Shown: positions 790 to 30,335 of the stretch, in pieces
How positions within the stretch are numbered: the first letter of the stretch is position 1
Layout of the letters: every line of letters begins with the position of its first letter
Origin: Deltaproteobacteria bacterium
Lineage (GTDB): Bacteria > Desulfobacterota > Desulfomonilia > UBA1062
Reading direction: 5' to 3'
Assembly: GCA_029547045.1 (NCBI GenBank)
Contig: JAKPQL010000016.1
Location: 1-52,610 of the forward strand
Length of the DNA: 52,610 bases
The notes under the pieces: generated by a model
Told to the model about the DNA's origin: nothing
Seen by the model: only the letters and a program-made list of their open reading frames with translations
Databases searched by the model: none
Made by a program: the position numbers and the translations under genes

Positions 790-2694
790 CTAGAAGCTCA
801 CCCCCTGAAGCCTGTCGATGGCGTCAATGGCGGCGCGCGCCACGTCGGGGTTTGCGTCGTCCTGGTACGGCTCCAGCTCGGCGGCGAGGGCCTCGTCCTC
901 CCACCCGGCCAGCGTCCTGATGGCCGAGATCCGCAGGAAGTCCGACCCGGAGGCGATGATGCCCAGCAGCCGCTGCTTCGCCTCCCGGTCCCGGAACATG
1001 CCCAGGGACTCGATGGCGTGGGACGCGGCCCACATGTTGTCCCCGGCGATGGCGTCTTCGAGTACGGGCCTGAGATCCCCCATCCTCTTGAGCCCCACGA
1101 TGTCGATGGCGGCGAACCTGATCTGCTCGTGATCATCGACAAGGAGGTCCCTGACCGTGGACGGAGGGATGTCGAGGTCCCTGTCCCGGATGACGGCCAG
1201 GGCGGCGGCCCGGACCTCCCAGTGGGAGTCCTTCAGGAGCCTGAGGGCCATCTCGCCGAGGCGGGGGCTCCCCATGCGGTCCAGCCCGTTCAGGGCCGCG
1301 GTCATCACCGCAGGGTCGGCCTTGTCGAGCATGCGCACGAAGACCTCCTGGCCGCGCTCGGTCCCGATGCGGATGACGCTGTCCAGCGCCGCCTCGCGCA
1401 CGTCGGGGTACCGGTGACTCAGAAACGGCTCGATCACCCCGAGATCCTCGGGATCCCCGAACTTGGCCAGCGCCTGCATGGCTGCGGAGATCACATGGCC
1501 GTCGGTGTCCTCCAGGAGCCGGTGGAACTCCTCCCGCAGGGATGCCCCGCCGATGGCGGCCAGCGCGTCGGCCAGGGCCCTCTTCACGTAGCCCTGGGAG
1601 GAATGGATGATCTCGCATATGCGCCCCGCCTCACGCTCGGAGCCGATCCTGCCCAGTACGTCGGCGGCCAGAATCTTGAGCTTGTCTTCGCCGTCGAGCA
1701 GCTCCAGCATGGCGGAGGTGTCGCCCAGGGAGCACAGGGCGTCCGTCACTGCGGCGAGCCGCTCTGCCTGGGTATCGGGGTCAGTGGCCCGGGCGAGGTC
1801 GACCAGGGCCTGCACGCTGGCCCTGTCGCCGATGCGGGACAGGGCGGAGAGCATCTCGCCGAGCAGCTCATCATCGGCGTCCGCCAGGTGCATGTCAATG
1901 ACGGCCTTGATGGCATGGGACTGTCTCCGGGCAAGGCCTGCGATCTCTCCCGGGGAGAGGATCTTGAGCAGCGCCTTGACGATCTCTGTCTCCACATAGG
2001 CGCTGGCGTTCTCCAGCATGGCGACCAGGGGTTCCACGCACTGCTTCGCCCTGATCTTCCCGATGGTCTCCAGCAGGGCCGAGATCGTGAGCTCGTCGTG
2101 GCCCCACCTCTGGAGCTGTTCCAGCAGGAATGCCGGCAGGCCTTCATGGGGGAGGTGCGACATGGCCTCGATGGCGCTGAAACGGATCCACTCCTCGTCG
2201 TCGATGAGCGCCTTGAGGTGTTCGAAGGCTTTCGTGTCCCCCAGGAGACCCAGGGAGACGACCGCTGCGTTGCGGATGTTGGCATCGGCGTCACGGAGGC
2301 CCCCGATGAGCACGTCCACGCTTTCCGGATTGCCGATGGTGCCGAGGATGTCCAGCACGAAGAGCCTGATGTCGTCGTTTTCGTCAACGGCGAGCCGGTG
2401 CAGGACGTCGATGCCGTCATCCCCGATCTTGCGCAGGATATCGATGGCCGCGTTGCGCAGTCCCGGATCGATCTCGGCCACCAGGGGCGCGACGAGCTCC
2501 ACGGCCCTCTTCCCGCCCATGAGCATGAGGGAGCTCTGGGCGGCGTCCCGCACGCCGCTGTTGGAATCCTTCAGGAGCCTCACCAGGCGCTCGACGGCGG
2601 CATCGTCCCCGGACTCTCCCAGCATGGTCGCCGCCATGCGCCGGTCCGCGGACTCCTGTGAGGCCATCAGTGCATCGATCTCTGTATAGTCCAT
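790..2694 (-). CDS. HEAT-repeat protein
   Basis: A 634-residue protein built almost entirely of 30-35 residue helical repeats of HEAT/PBS-lyase type (for example NSGVRDAAQSSLMLMG, DANIRNAAVVSLGLLGD, YPDVREAALDSVIRIG, ANPDVARAAIDAIDRL). No enzymatic motif, signal peptide or membrane segment is visible. Such alpha-solenoids are usually protein-docking scaffolds. The chosen ATG (MDYTEIDALM) has AGAGGA just upstream; the frame stays open 37 codons further to 2805, but that stretch is low-complexity and overlaps the preceding gene. It lies between the FliL-like gene and the HDOD gene, so a scaffold role in flagellar or chemosensory assembly is a plausible inference. Confidence 0.85.
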   Translation of the reverse strand: MDYTEIDALMASQESADRRMAATMLGESGDDAAVERLVRLLKDSNSGVRDAAQSSLMLMGGKRAVELVAPLVAEIDPGLRNAAIDILRKIGDDGIDVLHRLAVDENDDIRLFVLDILGTIGNPESVDVLIGGLRDADANIRNAAVVSLGLLGDTKAFEHLKALIDDEEWIRFSAIEAMSHLPHEGLPAFLLEQLQRWGHDELTISALLETIGKIRAKQCVEPLVAMLENASAYVETEIVKALLKILSPGEIAGLARRQSHAIKAVIDMHLADADDELLGEMLSALSRIGDRASVQALVDLARATDPDTQAERLAAVTDALCSLGDTSAMLELLDGEDKLKILAADVLGRIGSEREAGRICEIIHSSQGYVKRALADALAAIGGASLREEFHRLLEDTDGHVISAAMQALAKFGDPEDLGVIEPFLSHRYPDVREAALDSVIRIGTERGQEVFVRMLDKADPAVMTAALNGLDRMGSPRLGEMALRLLKDSHWEVRAAALAVIRDRDLDIPPSTVRDLLVDDHEQIRFAAIDIVGLKRMGDLRPVLEDAIAGDNMWAASHAIESLGMFRDREAKQRLLGIIASGSDFLRISAIRTLAGWEDEALAAELEPYQDDANPDVARAAIDAIDRLQGVSF

Positions 2695-2746
2695 GCTGTC
2701 CTCTGTCGCTTGGGGCCGCAGGGCCCCTTTCCCCTCAATCCTCGGG

Positions 2747-3358
2747 CTACCTGGCGTTGTACTGGACGAACGCCACTTCCTGTATCGGGTAATCCATGAG
2801 ATCATCTGAGAGCATCAGCGTGATCTCGGTCTGGGAATACACGCTTGCCGCGGCACTCAGCCTCCGGAAGATGATGTGCCTGATGTCGTAGAGCCTGCTC
2901 TCGATGGAAGGGATCACGTCCGGGTCCACCTTCAGGCTCACCTGGGCGATGAGGATGCCTGATTTCCTCGGTGTCTTGGTTTCGTAGAAGACCATGAAGG
3001 GGTCAAGGACGAGGCCGTCCCCGCCGCTGATCGCAGCCTTCGGCGCCTGGGGGACGACCCCGGGTGTCTTCGGCGCCTCGGCGCCGCCCTTCAGGAGCAC
3101 GAACCCGATGACAACGAGCAGCACGACGAGGCCCGCTGCACCCCCTGCAGCCGCCATGACGAGCTTTCTCGAGTACCGGGGCCGTCCTTCGACCGGAGCC
3201 TCCTCGGGGGCGGCAGGGCTCGGGGGTCCTTCTGCATCGGCCTCGGGCTCCTGGCTCTCCAGGGAGATCCCGTCCTTGTCGAGCTCGGCCTTGCCGGCAT
3301 CGGCAAAGACGATGCCCTCCTTGTCGAGATCCGCCTTTCTCCCCGGCTGGTCCGCCAC
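2747..3358 (-). CDS. FliL-like single-pass membrane protein
   Basis: A 203-residue protein with an acidic cytoplasmic N-terminus, one membrane helix at about residues 66-89 and a periplasmic domain starting LDPFMVFY. That domain resembles FliL, the flagellar basal-body protein that associates with the stator. The tail has two similar copies of a KADLDKEGI-like segment (residues 9 and 23), an odd short repeat. The start is GTG, with TAGGTG in front that overlaps the end of the cheY-type gene 8 nt upstream. FliL sequences are weakly conserved, so this is a family-level call supported by position in a flagellar operon. Confidence 0.65.
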   Translation of the reverse strand: MADQPGRKADLDKEGIVFADAGKAELDKDGISLESQEPEADAEGPPSPAAPEEAPVEGRPRYSRKLVMAAAGGAAGLVVLLVVIGFVLLKGGAEAPKTPGVVPQAPKAAISGGDGLVLDPFMVFYETKTPRKSGILIAQVSLKVDPDVIPSIESRLYDIRHIIFRRLSAAASVYSQTEITLMLSDDLMDYPIQEVAFVQYNAR

Positions 3359-4577: not shown

Positions 4578-5445
4578 GGCTCGTTCCTTTCGCCTGGTTC
4601 AAGAGCATCTTCCGGAAGAAGAACTGGAGGTTCCCGCTCGTGGACGCCCGGGAGGTCTCCTCGAGCCTGTCCGCGATCCTGGCGAGCCTCTTCACGGCAT
4701 CGCCGTTCGGGTTGACCCCCACGAACGCCTTCTGCGCCTTGATGCACTCCGGAATGGATTTGTCATGCGGGATGGAGCCGAGCATCTCCAGGGCCACATC
4801 CCCGAGGAACCTATCACATACCAATGTCAGTTTCTCCGCCACGTGATCCCCCTCTGATTTCGATGTCACGTTATTCACAATGAGGTCGAACCTCTTGATT
4901 CCGTAGTGTTTCCGCAGCACCTTGATGAGTGCGTACGCGTCGGTGATGGACGTGGGCTCCGCGGTGGCCACCACGATGATCCGCTGGGATGCCGCGTTGA
5001 AGTACATGACGTTCCTCGAGATCCCCGCGCCGGTGTCCACGATCATGTAGTCGAAGTCCCCGTCGAAATGGTCCAGCGCGTTCACGAGGCTGATCTGCTG
5101 GGAGGGATTGAGGTCCGCGAGTTCCTGGATGCCCGACGACGCCGGGATGATCCTGATGCCCGACGGCCCCGTGAGCACGATGTCGTCGATGGAACACTCT
5201 CCGTCCAGCACGTGCTTGATGGTGAGCCGCGGCGCGATGCCCAGCATCACGTCCACGTTGGCCAGGCCGAGGTCAGCGTCCAGGACCAGCACCTTCTTGC
5301 CCTTGGAGGCGAGCAGGATGGCCATGTTCACCACGATGCTCGTCTTGCCCACACCCCCTTTGCCGGAGGTGACGGAGATGACCTCGGGGGTCCGCGCCGT
5401 GCCGTCCTTGAAGATCTTCCGTAAGGTATGTGCCTGATCTTTCAT
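4546..5445 (-). CDS. flhG: MinD-like ATPase FlhG (FleN/YlxH), flagellar number control
   Basis: A 299-residue MinD/ParA-type ATPase. The N-terminus has DQAHTLR (residues 3-9), the DQAxxLR motif by which FlhG stimulates FlhF GTPase. The deviant Walker A KGGVGKT is at 29-35, VLDADLGLANVDVMLG gives Walker A', and MIVDTGAG gives Walker B. A C-terminal membrane-targeting region is expected for the family. The ATG overlaps the flhF stop (ATGA), which fixes the start; the frame is open much further upstream, but only as a shadow of flhF. With FlhF it sets flagellar place and number. Confidence 0.95.
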   Translation of the reverse strand: MKDQAHTLRKIFKDGTARTPEVISVTSGKGGVGKTSIVVNMAILLASKGKKVLVLDADLGLANVDVMLGIAPRLTIKHVLDGECSIDDIVLTGPSGIRIIPASSGIQELADLNPSQQISLVNALDHFDGDFDYMIVDTGAGISRNVMYFNAASQRIIVVATAEPTSITDAYALIKVLRKHYGIKRFDLIVNNVTSKSEGDHVAEKLTLVCDRFLGDVALEMLGSIPHDKSIPECIKAQKAFVGVNPNGDAVKRLARIADRLEETSRASTSGNLQFFFRKMLLNQAKGTSHAGYRVHGTY

Positions 5446-6509
5446 CGTGCGTCTCCAAGCGTGCATGCTACGATCTTGTCCGGACAGGCCGGCTCGATGT
5501 CCTCGGGCACCCTCTGGCCGGTGGTGATGTGGGAGACCGGGGTGCGGTGGACCATGTTGTGGGTGACGATCCCGCCGAAGCTGTGTGCCTCGTCGGCCTT
5601 GGTGAAGATCATGCGGTCGATCTTCAGCGGCGAGAACGCCGTGGTGATGGTGTCCATCTCCCGGTCCCGGGTGGCGACCGGCATGAGGAGGAACCGGCAC
5701 GCCTTCACCCCGTCGAAGAACCCGATGAGCTGGCGCACGTGGTCCGCGCAGAAGGGCGAGCGCCCCACGGTGTCCACGAGGATGAGGTCGGTGGATTCGA
5801 GCTGGTTCATGGCCGTGGCGAACTCGGGAGGGGTCGTCACGGAAAAGAACGGTATGTTCAAAATTTTGGCGTATATCCGGCTCTGGTCCACCGCGCCGAT
5901 CCGGTAGCTGTCCAGCGTGACCAGCGCCACCCGCTTCCCCTCCGCCATCACGGCCCGGGCCGCCATCTTGGCGATGGTCGTGGTCTTGCCGACGCCCGTG
6001 GTGCCGAGGAAGATCCGGATCCGCTCGTTCGTGGGGGCCTCCACGCGCAGCAGCCTAGAGAGCAGGTTCTTCACCTTATCCTCCGTGACGCCATCCCCCA
6101 GCTTGGAGAGGATGAGGTCGACGATGCTCTCCCGGACGCCCCCGGCCAGGAGCTTGTCCCGCAGAGGGCTGTAGGGCGCGACCTTGCTCTGAGACATGAG
6201 GTGCTTGAGCATCTTCTTCAACTCGACGATCTCGTCGCCGATATGCCCAGATACCGGAAGCGGCGGGGCAGGGTGGTTCCTCGCCTCCGGTGTCCCGCTG
6301 TGAGCGTTCTTCCCCTGCATCTTCTTAATAAACGTGTCGCTGTCATAGTCAACCGCGGCCACCACCTCGATGAGCGGCTTGCTCATGAGCCCGTATCCGC
6401 TCTCCTTGATCTCCCGCGTGGATATGATGACCGCGTTCGAGCCCAGCTCGGACTTGATCTGCGTCAACGCATCCTTCATGGATACCGCCGTGTAGGTTCT
6501 AATTTGCAT
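5442..6509 (-). CDS. flhF: Flagellar SRP-type GTPase FlhF
   Basis: A 355-residue SRP-type GTPase that marks the flagellar site. The N-terminal B domain (MQIRTYTAVSMKDALTQIK) is followed by a variable linker rich in Pro and His. The NG domain has the P-loop GTTGVGKTTT at about 169-178, DSYRIGAVDQ, the G3 element DTVGRSP and the G4 element TKADE. The length is usual for smaller FlhF proteins. It overlaps flhA by 11 nt and flhG by 4 nt, the canonical flhA-flhF-flhG order. Confidence 0.95.
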   Translation of the reverse strand: MQIRTYTAVSMKDALTQIKSELGSNAVIISTREIKESGYGLMSKPLIEVVAAVDYDSDTFIKKMQGKNAHSGTPEARNHPAPPLPVSGHIGDEIVELKKMLKHLMSQSKVAPYSPLRDKLLAGGVRESIVDLILSKLGDGVTEDKVKNLLSRLLRVEAPTNERIRIFLGTTGVGKTTTIAKMAARAVMAEGKRVALVTLDSYRIGAVDQSRIYAKILNIPFFSVTTPPEFATAMNQLESTDLILVDTVGRSPFCADHVRQLIGFFDGVKACRFLLMPVATRDREMDTITTAFSPLKIDRMIFTKADEAHSFGGIVTHNMVHRTPVSHITTGQRVPEDIEPACPDKIVACTLGDAR

Positions 6510-27549: not shown

Positions 27550-27579
27550 TTGACGGAGAGCGCTCTTCCCATCTATATT
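27550..27579 (+). promoter_or_regulatory. Sigma-70-type promoter for the HEAT-ParA-coiled-coil operon
   Basis: TTGACG (27550-27555), 18 nt, TATATT (27574-27579). An overlapping TTGACA sits 9 nt earlier. Transcription would start near 27586. GGAGAGGGGGG follows, before the ATG at 27609. Confidence 0.6.
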
Positions 27580-27608: not shown

Positions 27609-28262
27609 ATGGGTGTCGGTTTGAACCAGATCCTGCGGGACTTGCATGACGAAGACCCTGAGATCAAGAAGCTTGCCGCAAAGGCGATCCTCAAGGAATC
27701 ATCCGACCCTGTCAAGGTCTTTTCCTCGGTGCTCAAGGATGCAGATCAGCAGACATCGGCGGCCATCTACGACATCCTCTTCGACGCCGAGGACGACTTC
27801 ACGCCCATCTTCCGGGCGGCCACGACGGACGAAGACCCCGCGGTGAGGGCCCGGGCCATCCGCTACCTGTTCCGCAGGGGCGCGTTCCGGCCGGAGGAGG
27901 GCGCCAGGTGGCTGTCCGACAGCGACCCGTACGTGCGCAGGAGGGTGATCAGCTACCTCTTCTGGATGAACGACACGAGCTCCCTGGAGACCGTCGCGGC
28001 CCTGTGCACCGATGATCCGGACGAGTCGGTGAGGAAGGACTGCCTGAGGCTGATGGCCATCTGGGGGTCGCCGGAAAACGTGGAGCAGGTCATCAGGGCC
28101 CTGGAGGATCCGTCCCACGAGGTGAGCGTGCAGGCCGTACACACCCTGAAGAAACTCACGGGAGAGGACTTCGGCGAGCCCACAGGGGCCTCGCCCGAGG
28201 AGTTCGAATGGATCGTGGCCAAATGGCAGGGATGGTGGGAGATCATGAGGGAGCGGGCATAG
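27609..28262 (+). CDS. Small HEAT-repeat protein, first gene of a ParA operon
   Basis: A 217-residue soluble alpha-solenoid with about five HEAT-type repeats (DPEIKKLAAKAILKE, DPAVRARAIRYLFRRG, DPYVRRRVISYLFWM, DESVRKDCLRLMAIWG, SHEVSVQAVHTLKKLTG). The C-terminal tail is rich in tryptophan (EFEWIVAKWQGWWE), which may be a docking segment. There is no signal peptide or enzymatic motif. It ends one base before the parA-like ATG, so the two are translationally coupled. By analogy with the HEAT-containing PomY of Myxococcus it could be an accessory factor of the ParA system; this is inference. Confidence 0.8.
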   Translation: MGVGLNQILRDLHDEDPEIKKLAAKAILKESSDPVKVFSSVLKDADQQTSAAIYDILFDAEDDFTPIFRAATTDEDPAVRARAIRYLFRRGAFRPEEGARWLSDSDPYVRRRVISYLFWMNDTSSLETVAALCTDDPDESVRKDCLRLMAIWGSPENVEQVIRALEDPSHEVSVQAVHTLKKLTGEDFGEPTGASPEEFEWIVAKWQGWWEIMRERA

Positions 28263-28263
28263 G

Positions 28264-29223
28264 ATGGAACAACCGGTATACACACCGAAGGACTTTGCAA
28301 CCCTGCTGGGCATCACGAAATCCACGCTGCTCAAGATGGAGACCGAGGGCAAGCTGCCGCAGCCCCAGGTGACAGACGGGATGCGGGTGTACTATCCCCA
28401 CGACATCCCGGAATACCTCAAGGCACTGGGCAAACCGCCCCTGGTCACGTCCCGTCGGAGGCAGATCTTCCTCAACTTCAAGGGCGGCACGGGAAAGACG
28501 AGCATCTCTGCCTTCTACGCCTTCCGCCTCGCATGTCTCGGCATGAAGGTGCTCCTCATAGACCTCGACCCCCAGGGCCACCTCACCCAGTGCCTGGGCA
28601 TCGACCACGAGTCCTTCGACGCCACCCTGTACAGCGTGCTCATCGAGAGGGCCGACATCCGGGACATCATCCTGTCCACCAGAATGAAGAACCTGCACCT
28701 CGTCCCCGCGAACCTCGACCTGTCGCCTGTGGAGCTCGCGCTCACCTCCATGAACGCGCGTGAGCAGCGCCTGAGAAAGAGCATCTCCTCCATCCAGGAC
28801 GACTACGACGTCATCGTCATGGACGCCTCCCCCTCCATAGGGCTGCTGAACCTGAACGGCATACTCGCCTGCAACGACCTCTTCGTGCCGGTCCTGGCCG
28901 ACTTCCTGTCGTACCACGGCCTGAAGATCCTCTTCGAGACGCTCTCCACCATCGAGGAGGATTTCGACTTCATCTTCGAGAACATCTACATCTTCCTCAA
29001 CAACTACAACGCCTCCCACAACATCTGCCAGCGGGCGAAGGAGGCCCTGGAGAAGCACTACGACGGCTACCTCATGAAGACCGTGATCCGCCAGGACATC
29101 AAGATCGCCGAGGCGGCGAGCGTGGGCACGCCCATCCACCAGTATGCGCCGAAGAACAGGGGGTCTACGGATCTGAACGAGTTCATCAAGGAAGTTTTTC
29201 CCAATCTGGGAATTGTGTTTTGA
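28264..29223 (+). CDS. Orphan ParA-type ATPase with N-terminal MerR-like HTH
   Basis: A 319-residue fusion. Residues 1-55 form a MerR-type winged helix (YTPKDFATLLGITKSTLLKMETEGKL, RVYYPHDIPEYL). Residues 66-319 are a ParA ATPase with deviant Walker A KGGTGKT (73-79, including the signature lysine), Walker A' LLIDLDPQGHLTQ and Walker B IVMDASPS. No parB or parS-like gene set accompanies it. Such orphan ParAs position cargo other than chromosomes (chemoreceptor arrays, carboxysomes, division sites) and need a partner with a basic N-terminal peptide; the downstream coiled-coil protein is the obvious candidate. Confidence 0.9.
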   Translation: MEQPVYTPKDFATLLGITKSTLLKMETEGKLPQPQVTDGMRVYYPHDIPEYLKALGKPPLVTSRRRQIFLNFKGGTGKTSISAFYAFRLACLGMKVLLIDLDPQGHLTQCLGIDHESFDATLYSVLIERADIRDIILSTRMKNLHLVPANLDLSPVELALTSMNAREQRLRKSISSIQDDYDVIVMDASPSIGLLNLNGILACNDLFVPVLADFLSYHGLKILFETLSTIEEDFDFIFENIYIFLNNYNASHNICQRAKEALEKHYDGYLMKTVIRQDIKIAEAASVGTPIHQYAPKNRGSTDLNEFIKEVFPNLGIVF

Positions 29224-29267
29224 ACGGTTTTATGGTTAACGTAATGCTCGGGTTCACCGGACGGTAC

Positions 29268-29284
29268 CACAGTCCAACACTGTG
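29268..29284. promoter_or_regulatory. Perfect 17-bp inverted repeat between parA-like and coiled-coil genes
   Basis: CACAGT-CCAAC-ACTGTG lies in the 91-nt gap after the ParA gene, 30 nt before the coiled-coil start. It could be an operator for the MerR-like domain of the ParA protein, a parS-like site, or an mRNA hairpin. No U-tract follows, so it is not a standard terminator. Confidence 0.4.
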
Positions 29285-29314
29285 CCAATAGATTGCTATG
29301 AGGAGCTGCTATCC

Positions 29315-30106
29315 ATGAAAGACGGATTTGACAGAAGCGTTGCCGAACGCATGCCCAAGATGCAGAAGCGCAGGCCGAACAGGCCGTGGAATGTAGACCC
29401 TGTACTGATACGGTCCCAGGAAGAGGTGAAGGAGGAGACCAAGGAACAGCCCCCAGCCAGGGCGAAGGCCGCACCTGAGCAAGCGGCGCAGGCTCCCGCG
29501 GCAGCCCCGGTGGTCCTTGGCATGGCCAACGATACCATCGCCAGGGCCGTGGAGACCATCGAGGACCTGCACTCTGAATTTTCCCACATCATCTTCGAGA
29601 AGAAGGACATCCAGCGCAAGCTCATGGAGCACGACCGGGTCATCGAAGAGGTGGGGCGCGAGAACAGCACCCTCAGGGAGAACCTCGCCGATCTGGAAAA
29701 GGCGGCGGGCGAGCGGATGCTCCTCCACAAGGAGATCACCTTCCTGAACGAGCAGATCGAGGACGCCGACCATTACATCAGGCACGTGGTGGGCATGCTC
29801 GAGGAGAAGACCGCGGGGTACGACTCCGAGGTGATGAAGAACAAGGCCCTCGAGGACAGGCTGGCGCGCTTTTCCAAGGACATCCAGGACAAGGCCAAGC
29901 TGGACGTCAAGGTGTCCATCCTTGAAAAGGACCTGACGCTGAGCACCACCCGCATCCGCGAACTGGAGACCTGCCTCGAGGAGGAGTTCAGAAAGAGAAA
30001 ACCCCTGGAAGACGAGATCTCCGAGCTCAAGAGCGCCCTGGACAGAGTGTACTCCTCCCTGTCCCACATCCGGCTCAAGGCCAAACGCGAGGTGTATGGA
30101 TCCTGA
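29315..30106 (+). CDS. Coiled-coil protein with basic N-terminal peptide, candidate ParA partner
   Basis: A 263-residue protein. The first 25 residues are basic and contain MKDGFDRSV and PKMQKRRPNRP. An Ala/Pro-rich linker follows (about 50-75), then a near-continuous coiled coil (about 80-258; for example LMEHDRVIEEVGRENSTLRE). The ATG at 29315 has GAGGAG nine bases upstream; an in-frame GTG at 29282 has no such site. The layout (short cationic N-terminus, linker, coiled coil) is that of PomX and TlpT, which stimulate ParA ATPases through the N-terminal peptide. The last bases overlap the next gene by 11 nt. Confidence 0.85.
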   Translation: MKDGFDRSVAERMPKMQKRRPNRPWNVDPVLIRSQEEVKEETKEQPPARAKAAPEQAAQAPAAAPVVLGMANDTIARAVETIEDLHSEFSHIIFEKKDIQRKLMEHDRVIEEVGRENSTLRENLADLEKAAGERMLLHKEITFLNEQIEDADHYIRHVVGMLEEKTAGYDSEVMKNKALEDRLARFSKDIQDKAKLDVKVSILEKDLTLSTTRIRELETCLEEEFRKRKPLEDEISELKSALDRVYSSLSHIRLKAKREVYGS

Positions 30107-30335
30107 TACCTCCAAAAAGGTCACTGACCTGCTGGGTATCATGGAAGGCATCTCTTCCGACATGGACATCAAGGCGGAGCTGGATGCCTTCACGTCGCGG
30201 ATCGCGACCCTGGAGAAGAAGGTGGAGGAGCTGACGCAGCGCCTCGACAGGATGGAAAAGGCCGGCCGGGAGAAACAGGAAGTGCTGAAGGCGCTGCGCA
30301 AAGAACTCAAGAACCTCTTCCCGGCCGGGGCCTGA
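30096..30335 (+). CDS. Short coiled-coil protein
   Basis: A 79-residue, highly charged protein. The centre is a coiled coil (LDAFTSRIATLEKKVEELTQ) and the end is basic (LKALRKELKNLF). The ATG overlaps the end of the preceding coiled-coil gene by 11 nt, so it belongs to the same operon. I do not recognise a family. It may co-assemble with the larger coiled-coil protein; this is inference from adjacency and heptad character. Confidence 0.65.
   Translation: MDPDTSKKVTDLLGIMEGISSDMDIKAELDAFTSRIATLEKKVEELTQRLDRMEKAGREKQEVLKALRKELKNLFPAGA

What the first reader, a model, noticed from the sequence alone, without database searches (positions are those of the whole stretch)
27609..30335. Candidate undescribed ParA-based positioning module (HEAT protein, MerR-ParA, two coiled coils)
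Seen: four tightly packed plus-strand genes behind one promoter: a HEAT-repeat protein, a ParA with a full deviant Walker A, a coiled-coil protein and a second short coiled coil. No ParB is present. Known: PomX (coiled coil), PomY (coiled coil plus HEAT) and PomZ (ParA) of Myxococcus xanthus place the division site; PpfA/TlpT place chemoreceptor arrays; McdAB places carboxysomes. Inferred: this is a cargo-positioning system of the same logic in a lineage where the partner genes are not annotated. The cargo could be the division site, flagella or a chemosensory array, since flagellar place genes (flhF/flhG) are in the same window.
Basis: partly seen in the sequence, partly recalled or inferred. 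Interest (0 to 1): 0.8.

Follow-up and report, generated by a model that had tools for sequence, protein, structure and literature searches.

The report
PomXYZ-like positioning operon outside myxobacteria
A four-gene operon in an uncultured Thermodesulfobacteriota bacterium encodes a relative of PomX and a likely relative of PomZ, proteins that place the cell-division site in myxobacteria, so this way of finding midcell is probably not confined to myxobacteria.

Summary
CC is a PomX homologue: residues 1-16 align in register with PomX's ATPase-activating peptide, and a combined profile of its coiled coil matches 24 PomX orthologues to the C-terminus (score 42.7; maximum of 100 heptad-block shuffles 23.7). 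The ParA has the PomZ residue pattern: 14 of 23 published residues at one ungapped offset (next best 5). In 395 phylum genomes this ParA and the peptide motif occur in the same 25 genomes, in three families; one family has two motif-bearing coiled coils. The genome has a separate ParA-ParB. Some carriers lack flagella or chemoreceptors, so neither is the general cargo; the division site is inferred and untested. Against: K13 of the peptide is not kept, PomY is represented at most by a lone HEAT protein, PomZ and PomY sequences were not in hand. Verdict: a split PomXYZ variant outside myxobacteria.

The parts
27550..27579 (+). sigma-70-like promoter match (TTGACG, 18 bases, TATATT)
   Evidence: 1 found, 0.6 expected in shuffles, so weak
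27609..28262 (+). HEAT-repeat protein, 217 aa; possible counterpart of the HEAT block of PomY
   Evidence: HEAT_2 5.9e-20; model mean pLDDT 93.2, 13 helices read as six pairs plus one; next to the ParA in 21 of 22 loci, the 22nd cut
28264..29223 (+). MerR-ParA ATPase, 319 aa, PomZ-like
   Evidence: AAA_31 9.1e-45, MerR_1; 14 of 23 PomZ residues at one offset
28480..28500 (+). deviant Walker A motif, residues 73-79 of the ParA (KGGTGKT)
29101..29103 (+). K280, equivalent of the DNA-binding K268 of PomZ
   Evidence: K268 role from PMC13170346
29229..29239 (+). DNA element TTTTATGGTTA between parA and cc, conserved in f1 relatives; role unknown
   Evidence: 15 aligned loci; one place in the window
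29315..30106 (+). CC, coiled-coil protein, 263 aa, PomX homologue
29315..29380 (+). N-terminal peptide of CC (residues 1-22), PomX-type predicted activator of the ParA
29378..29404 (+). second conserved stretch of CC, NRPWNVDPV (residues 22-30)
   Evidence: PW within the first 60 residues in 0 of 120 PomX proteins
30096..30335 (+). CC2, short coiled-coil protein, 79 aa, conserved N-terminus MDPDTSKKV.DLL; role unknown
   Evidence: in 21 of 22 loci, the 22nd cut; alignment of 14

Best explanation
The operon encodes a MerR-ParA ATPase with the PomZ residue pattern, a PomX-homologous coiled-coil protein whose PomX-type N-terminal peptide is predicted to activate that ATPase, a HEAT protein and a short coiled coil, and together they likely place the cell-division site by a PomXYZ-type mechanism. 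Mechanism, inferred from PomXYZ: ATP-bound ParA dimers would sit on the nucleoid through the patch around K280; CC would polymerise through its coiled coil into a cluster with the HEAT protein and perhaps CC2; the N-terminal peptides of the cluster would bind the ParA dimer interface and trigger ATP hydrolysis, releasing ParA locally, so that the flux of ParA moves the cluster to the middle of the nucleoid, where it would promote FtsZ-ring assembly. Shown here: operon conservation, homology of CC to PomX, PomZ-type pocket residues in the ParA, co-occurrence of that ParA with the peptide motif in the same sampled genomes, a separate ParA-ParB in the genome, and carriers without flagellar or chemoreceptor matches. 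Inferred and untested: ATPase activation, nucleoid binding, cluster formation and the division-site cargo.
For: (1) Operon kept in 22 named loci: ParA in 22, CC in 22 by selection (L028 holds only its first 23 residues), HEAT in 21 (L019 cut), CC2 in 21 (L028 cut), same order. (2) CC against PomX: residues 1-16 on 1-16, hhalign P 1.2e-4 (reversed control P 0.0088), 121 of 1,000,000 shuffles as good; coiled coil, combined f1+f9+f6 profile, P 3.5e-5 over 168 columns, score 42.7 against a maximum of 23.7 in 100 heptad-block shuffles and 19-21 for reversed profiles. Same layout: peptide, linker of variable length (11 Ala and 5 Pro of 39 here), C-terminal coiled coil. (3) ParA against PomZ: 14 of 23 residues named in PMC13170346 and PMC7993993 identical at offset +12, next best 5; PomY-alpha5 pocket 6 of 8, PomX-peptide pocket 6 of 13 plus 4 conservative changes; five other ParA/MinD proteins of the genome 0-2 of 8 and 0-3 of 13. 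(4) 395 phylum genomes: ParA (E <= 1e-55) in 25, motif (E <= 1e-3) in the same 25. (5) mxan_0634-0635-0636 = pomY, pomZ, pomX: ParA in the middle as here. (6) Six HEAT pairs in the model; PomY is given six (PMC10307791) or seven (PMC13170346). (7) MinC_C in 0 of 42 genomes of the class.
Against: PomZ and PomY sequences were not in hand: PomZ was compared through 23 published residues only, PomY not at all. K13 of the PomX peptide, one of its two essential residues, is M or F in all 15 aligned rows; R15 is K/R in 12 of 15, and T in the f6 protein. f1 CC alone against PomX is not significant over the coiled coil (probability 0.9%, score 20.9, no better than reversed). The f9 short partner's N-terminus fits the PomX peptide weakly (10,475 of 1,000,000 shuffles), and in the f9 long partner the motif is some ten residues from the start. 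Lysine at the K268 position also occurs in two of the five control ATPases. MinC is rare in the phylum (29 of 395 over cut-off), so 0 of 25 carriers is not significant (Fisher P 0.24). No neighbouring gene that I identified points to division: priA, PrsR, PrsK in the window, ruvABC in f6, a glutamate-synthase-like gene in f9. HEAT lacks the coiled coil, disordered region and gD domain of PomY.
Confidence: 0.62

Rival explanations
1. A PomX/PomZ-type ParA system that moves a different cargo: the same nucleoid ratchet, but the CC cluster carries something other than the division machinery, for example an enzyme cluster or another large assembly.
For: Most of PomY, the partner said to form the condensate that enriches FtsZ (PMC10307791, passages), is missing; CC2 is unexplained; no identified neighbour is a division gene. 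Only two cargo classes, flagella and chemoreceptors, were tested by genome content.
Against: CC and ParA are related to division-site proteins; no other cargo gene travels with the operon across the three families.
Confidence: 0.22
2. It positions flagella or a chemosensory array, helped by the flagellar genes in the same window.
For: FlhF, FlhA, FlhB and a MinD-like ATPase are in the window; 21 of 24 f1 genomes have FlhA.
Against: 8 of 11 f9 carriers and G021 of f1 have no FlhA match; G021, G026, G270, G365 and G400 have no MCP match.
Confidence: 0.05
3. A DNA-partition system descended from a plasmid: the MerR-ParA would segregate DNA bound by CC or the HEAT protein.
For: The best NCBIfam match of the ParA is plasmid RepA (1.8e-36, far below its cut-off); plasmids carry distant MerR-ParAs with ParB (35% identity).
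Against: No ParB beside it, no CC match in 72,556 plasmid records or in viral contigs, pocket residues unlike the plasmid protein; CC shows no DNA-binding family over cut-off.
Confidence: 0.06
4. The likeness of CC to PomX is convergent: any short basic peptide plus a coiled coil would look alike, and the system is an independent ParA module.
For: K13 not kept; f1 CC alone gives no coiled-coil match; five unrelated ORFs among 2983 reach the window CC's peptide score.
Against: Combined coiled-coil profile far above 100 heptad-block shuffles, peptide in register from residue 1, and the ParA independently shows the PomZ pattern.
Confidence: 0.05

Closest known systems
PomX of Myxococcus xanthus (MXAN_0636)
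   Same: N-terminal peptide aligning at M1 K2 F5 (D/E)6 V9 P14 (K/R)15, Ala/Pro-containing linker of variable length, collinear C-terminal coiled coil
   Different: 263 aa against 404; K13 is M; NRPWNVDPV follows the peptide here, with no PW in the first 60 residues of 120 PomX proteins
PomZ of M. xanthus (MXAN_0635)
   Same: 14 of 23 published residues identical at one offset, including parts of both partner pockets, D90 and K268
   Different: F180, L210, F205, V229, L242, E256, F257, Q271 and E275 differ (six of them mildly); whether PomZ has a MerR domain was not tested
PomY of M. xanthus (MXAN_0634)
   Same: HEAT block of similar size (217 aa; residues 221-428 in PomY, PMC13170346), encoded beside the ParA gene
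   Different: No coiled coil, disordered region or gD domain; sequence homology not tested
ParABS and plasmid RepA/ParA-ParB
   Same: ParA with deviant Walker A; the plasmid form compared also aligns over the N-terminal domain
   Different: No ParB; partner is a PomX-type coiled coil; pocket residues differ
McdAB and PpfA/TlpT (recalled)
   Same: ParA driven by a basic peptide on the cargo adaptor (recalled knowledge)
   Different: Partners not compared by sequence; chemoreceptor matches absent from some carriers

Membership tests
PomXYZ | PomX: conserved N-terminal activating peptide | tested here: met
   1-16 on 1-16, P 1.2e-4, reversed control P 0.0088; 121 of 1,000,000 shuffles; in 2983 ORFs window CC scores 26, as do or better 20 other CC ORFs and 5 unrelated ones. 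Essential K13 not kept, so similarity is met, activity is untested.
PomXYZ | PomX: homologous C-terminal coiled coil | tested here: met
   Combined profile P 3.5e-5, 0 of 100 heptad-block shuffles as high; f1 alone not significant, f9+f6 alone P 0.0041
PomXYZ | PomZ: ParA with both partner pockets and the DNA-binding lysine | tested here: met
   6 of 8, 6 of 13, K268 and D90 equivalents; genome controls 0-2 and 0-3; five MerR-ParA controls 4 of 8 and 2-4 of 13 without the lysine
PomXYZ | PomZ: orthology by full-length sequence or tree | not tested
   No PomZ sequence could be fetched
PomXYZ | PomY: coiled coil, HEAT, disordered region and gD domain in one protein | tested here: not met
   HEAT stands alone, 217 aa; no PomY-length protein in the operon
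PomXYZ | Neighbouring genes with pomZ between pomY and pomX | tested here: met
   HEAT-ParA-CC in 21 of 22 loci, the 22nd cut; mxan_0634-0636 numbering
PomXYZ | Places the FtsZ ring at midcell | not testable with these tools
   Needs microscopy
ParABS | ParB beside the ParA | tested here: not met
   Only ParB_N match of the genome is on contig C21 behind another ParA
MinCDE | MinC present in the genome | tested here: not met
   0 of 42 genomes of the class, window's genome included; positive in 6 of 14 control genomes
PpfA/TlpT | Chemoreceptors present in carriers | tested here: not met
   No MCP match in carriers G021, G026, G270, G365, G400; present in the other carriers tested, the window's genome included (8 matches)
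McdAB | Carboxysome or other microcompartment cargo and McdB partner | not tested
   No microcompartment search was run

The most novel reading that the evidence does not exclude
PomXYZ-type midcell positioning is wider, and perhaps older, than the myxobacteria: three scattered Thermodesulfobacteriota families carry a split version with a lone HEAT protein in place of PomY, and in one family the PomX role is shared by two coiled-coil proteins bearing the same ParA-activating motif, so that one ParA is driven by two adaptors.
Probability: 0.55. Interest if true: 0.72.

Novelty: new variant of a known kind. Interest (0 to 1): 0.64.

Why it matters
How most Thermodesulfobacteriota choose their division site is open: MinC passed its cut-off in only 29 of 395 sampled phylum genomes. 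PomXYZ is described as a myxobacterial system (PMC7993993, PMC13170346, passages read). Relatives of PomX and, by residue pattern, PomZ with a much smaller partner set would give a natural minimal version of that system, show which residues of the activating peptide are shared (F5, V9, P14) and which are not (K13), and offer an N-terminal motif by which such systems can be found in other genomes.

Tried and rejected
Flagella or chemoreceptors as general cargo: rejected by genome content. Plasmid or viral origin: no CC match. CC2 as counterpart of the PomY alpha5 helix: scored against six published alpha5 residues, CC2 was no better than other stretches and the best stretch was inside the ParA, so dropped. 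f1 CC alone against PomX: no significant coiled-coil match. f9 short-partner N-terminus against the PomX peptide: weak. MinC anticorrelation: not significant. The f6 coiled coil as a query for wider relatives: only 4 proteins, one of them itself. Literature on PomXYZ outside myxobacteria: searches (and the broad, useless; one search gave one magnetosome paper, listing only) showed no such report; the library lacks most subscription journals. I saw passages of PMC7993993, PMC13170346 (plus part 1 of its section 13), PMC10307791, PMC11271474 and PMC4672049, and no whole text.

Limits: the phylum ParA search scored at most 5 candidates per genome, so distant MerR-ParAs can be missed there. The motif and ParA profiles (A3, A4) were built partly from f1 and f9 members that they then find; the f6 genome was not in the motif profile and was still found. 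PomX orthologues were picked by the peptide, so their N-terminal likeness to each other is by construction; their coiled coils are not. I aligned 24 of the 120 listed. P0154 of that list bears the tag COCOR_00544, which PMC7993993 names as PomX.
Full report
What is there. Spacings of 1 and 91 bases, an 11-base overlap and one weak promoter-like site make an operon likely. Pfam gives HEAT repeats for the first gene and AAA_31 plus a MerR-type N-terminal domain for the second; for the two coiled coils none of the listed families reaches its cut-off. The ParA model (AlphaFold2, 10 sequences, mean pLDDT 74.5, pTM 0.80, low around residues 74-77, 192-195 and 282-286) is closest to Soj/ParA structures. 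The HEAT model (17 sequences, mean pLDDT 93.2) has 13 helices, which I read as six HEAT pairs and a C-terminal helix.

A conserved operon. A scan of named genome contigs with 22 aligned CC proteins gave 22 loci, titled Deltaproteobacteria, Thermodesulfobacteriota or Syntrophaceae MAGs. ParA is in 22; CC in 22 by selection (L028 has only its first 23 residues); HEAT in 21 (L019 starts at the ParA); CC2 in 21 (missing in L028, truncated in L008); the order is the same. All 24 held genomes of the window's family (f1) have the ParA. A separate ParA-ParB pair is on contig C21, so the ParA studied here is an orphan by neighbourhood.

CC is a PomX homologue. The CC family has a nearly invariant N-terminus (MKDGFD.SVAE.MPK..K.RPNRPWNVDPV), a linker of variable length, and a coiled coil ending in LKAKREVYGS (22 of 137 proteins found). 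The PomX peptide that activates PomZ, printed in PMC13170346, is MKKAFEQNVSRAKPRLRLGALT. Against f1 N-termini 121 of 1,000,000 shuffles (Met fixed) score as high; against the f9 long partner 1,613, against the f9 short partner 10,475. A profile comparison of the first 33 residues of CC with the first 26 of 24 PomX orthologues aligns 1-16 on 1-16, P 1.2e-4, score 19.1 (reversed control 12.6, P 0.0088); f9+f6 gives P 0.0041. Among 2983 distinct ORFs of my loci, 26 hold a stretch scoring at least the window CC's 26: 21 CC ORFs, each from its own Met, and 5 unrelated ones. For the coiled coil, f1 CC alone gives nothing (probability 0.9%), f9+f6 P 0.0041, and the combined profile of 30 sequences P 3.5e-5 over 168 columns reaching the PomX C-terminus, score 42.7, against a maximum of 23.7 in 100 heptad-block shuffles, 19-21 for reversed profiles and 17.6 for CC2. 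I take CC to be homologous to PomX. The PomX proteins came from a search with the printed peptide (131 hits, 120 listed), named in Myxococcus, Corallococcus, Archangium, Cystobacter, Hyalangium and others; one, P0154, bears the tag COCOR_00544 that PMC7993993 gives as PomX.

The ParA looks like PomZ. I could not fetch PomZ. Papers name 23 of its residues used here: 21 in two predicted partner pockets, D90 and K268. On the window ParA they fit at one offset, +12, without a gap: 14 of 23 identical; the next best of 105 offsets gives 5. The PomY-alpha5 pocket keeps 6 of 8; the PomX-peptide pocket keeps 6 of 13 (F202, E219, E248, A249, Y254, S274), with F205Y, V229I, L242I and F257Y mild and E256, Q271, E275 changed. 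Ten family members score 5-6 and 5-6. The five other ParA/MinD proteins of the genome score 0-2 of 8 and 0-3 of 13, though two of them also have lysine at the K268 position (a second alignment agrees within one or two residues). Four f2 MerR-ParAs and one plasmid MerR-ParA score 4 of 8 and 2-4 of 13 and lack the lysine, so part of the alpha5 pocket is general to MerR-ParAs; the PomZ-like signal lies mainly in D221, F202, E219, A249, S274 and K268 (A147 is Ser in several members).

Distribution. In 395 genomes of the phylum, drawn evenly, the ParA subfamily (E <= 1e-55) is in 25: 13 of f1, 11 of f9, 1 of f6. The N-terminal motif profile is at E <= 1e-3 in the same 25; 13 further genomes at E 0.014-0.041 look like chance. 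In f9 two proteins behind the ParA carry the motif: a 110-aa one (DEFTNNVAQKFPN...PWDV) and a roughly 270-aa one (ADGFD.SVAEKMPK) homologous to CC (profile with f6: hhalign probability 99.2). Ten of the 11 f9 carriers show both; G365 shows only the longer. In f6 the order is HEAT-ParA-CC, beside ruvB, ruvA and ruvC; in the window the neighbours are priA, PrsR and PrsK. Flanks differ between families, which suggests that the operon is kept for its own function. Two f9 genomes of the sample, G085 and G249, have no ParA match.

Cargo. No FlhA match in 8 of the 11 f9 carriers and in G021, G028 and G040 of f1 (97, 77 and 80% complete). No MCP match in carriers G021, G026, G270, G365 and G400; G177 has one below the cut-off. 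Flagella and receptor arrays are therefore not the general cargo. MinC is in 0 of 42 genomes of the class and 0 of 25 carriers, but in only 29 of 395 phylum genomes over cut-off (Fisher P 0.24). FtsZ-ring placement is thus an inference from homology, not from genome content.

Mechanism. [quoted passage not shown] The weak points are the missing K13, the absence of most of PomY and the unexplained CC2. PomY is reported to form condensates through its coiled coil while its HEAT part alone forms none (PMC10307791, passages). If the system acts on FtsZ, HEAT or CC2 would have to supply that step in another way, or the cargo is different.

Novelty. [quoted passage not shown] PMC13170346 says the system is conserved in myxobacteria (passages). 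My searches listed no report outside that group. I rate this a new variant of a known kind: related to PomX by homology (shown) and to PomZ by residue pattern, failing the PomY definition. I do not call it a PomXYZ system proper.

Noticed in passing
L123 6058-7101 (-) and 5752-6051 (-); L124 6971-7936 (+) and 7975-8433 (+): 5 of 18 genomes of the sister family f2 have a more distant MerR-ParA (223-233 bits). In the two loci read in detail it is directly followed by a small protein with a basic N-terminus (KKPDY..F.K.PAPLS) and a DIPW stretch; in L123 it ends in a hydrophobic, by eye membrane-spanning, segment. Possibly a membrane-linked orphan ParA system.
   Followed up: partly
window 29229-29239: DNA element TTTTATGGTTA just behind the ParA stop codon, conserved in 15 aligned f1 loci, one place in the window, not found in L023 and L025. 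It could be an operator for the MerR domain or an internal promoter.
   Followed up: partly
window 29378-29404; L042 886-1218; L123 5752-6051: A PW stretch follows the basic peptide in CC (RPWNVDPV), in the f9 110-aa partner (PWDV) and in the f2 small partner (IPWAE); it is within the first 60 residues in none of 120 PomX proteins. It may mark partners of MerR-ParAs.
   Followed up: partly
window 790-2805 (-): A second, 671-aa HEAT-repeat protein (HEAT_2 8.4e-67) about 25 kb away, near flhF (5442-6509), flhA and flhB.
   Followed up: no
G000 C69:82145-82879 (L003): A further ParA (31% identical to the window ParA) in a 396-aa open frame, not near the only ParB_N match; partner unknown.
   Followed up: no
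G033 C69:17327-19281: FlhA of this relative is matched in two pieces, the first with two TGA codons inside: a broken gene or an assembly error.
   Followed up: no
L127 2971-4933: The closest plasmid MerR-ParA (Candidatus Manganitrophus, 35% identity) is followed by a ParB gene, so MerR-ParAs use unrelated partners.
   Followed up: yes
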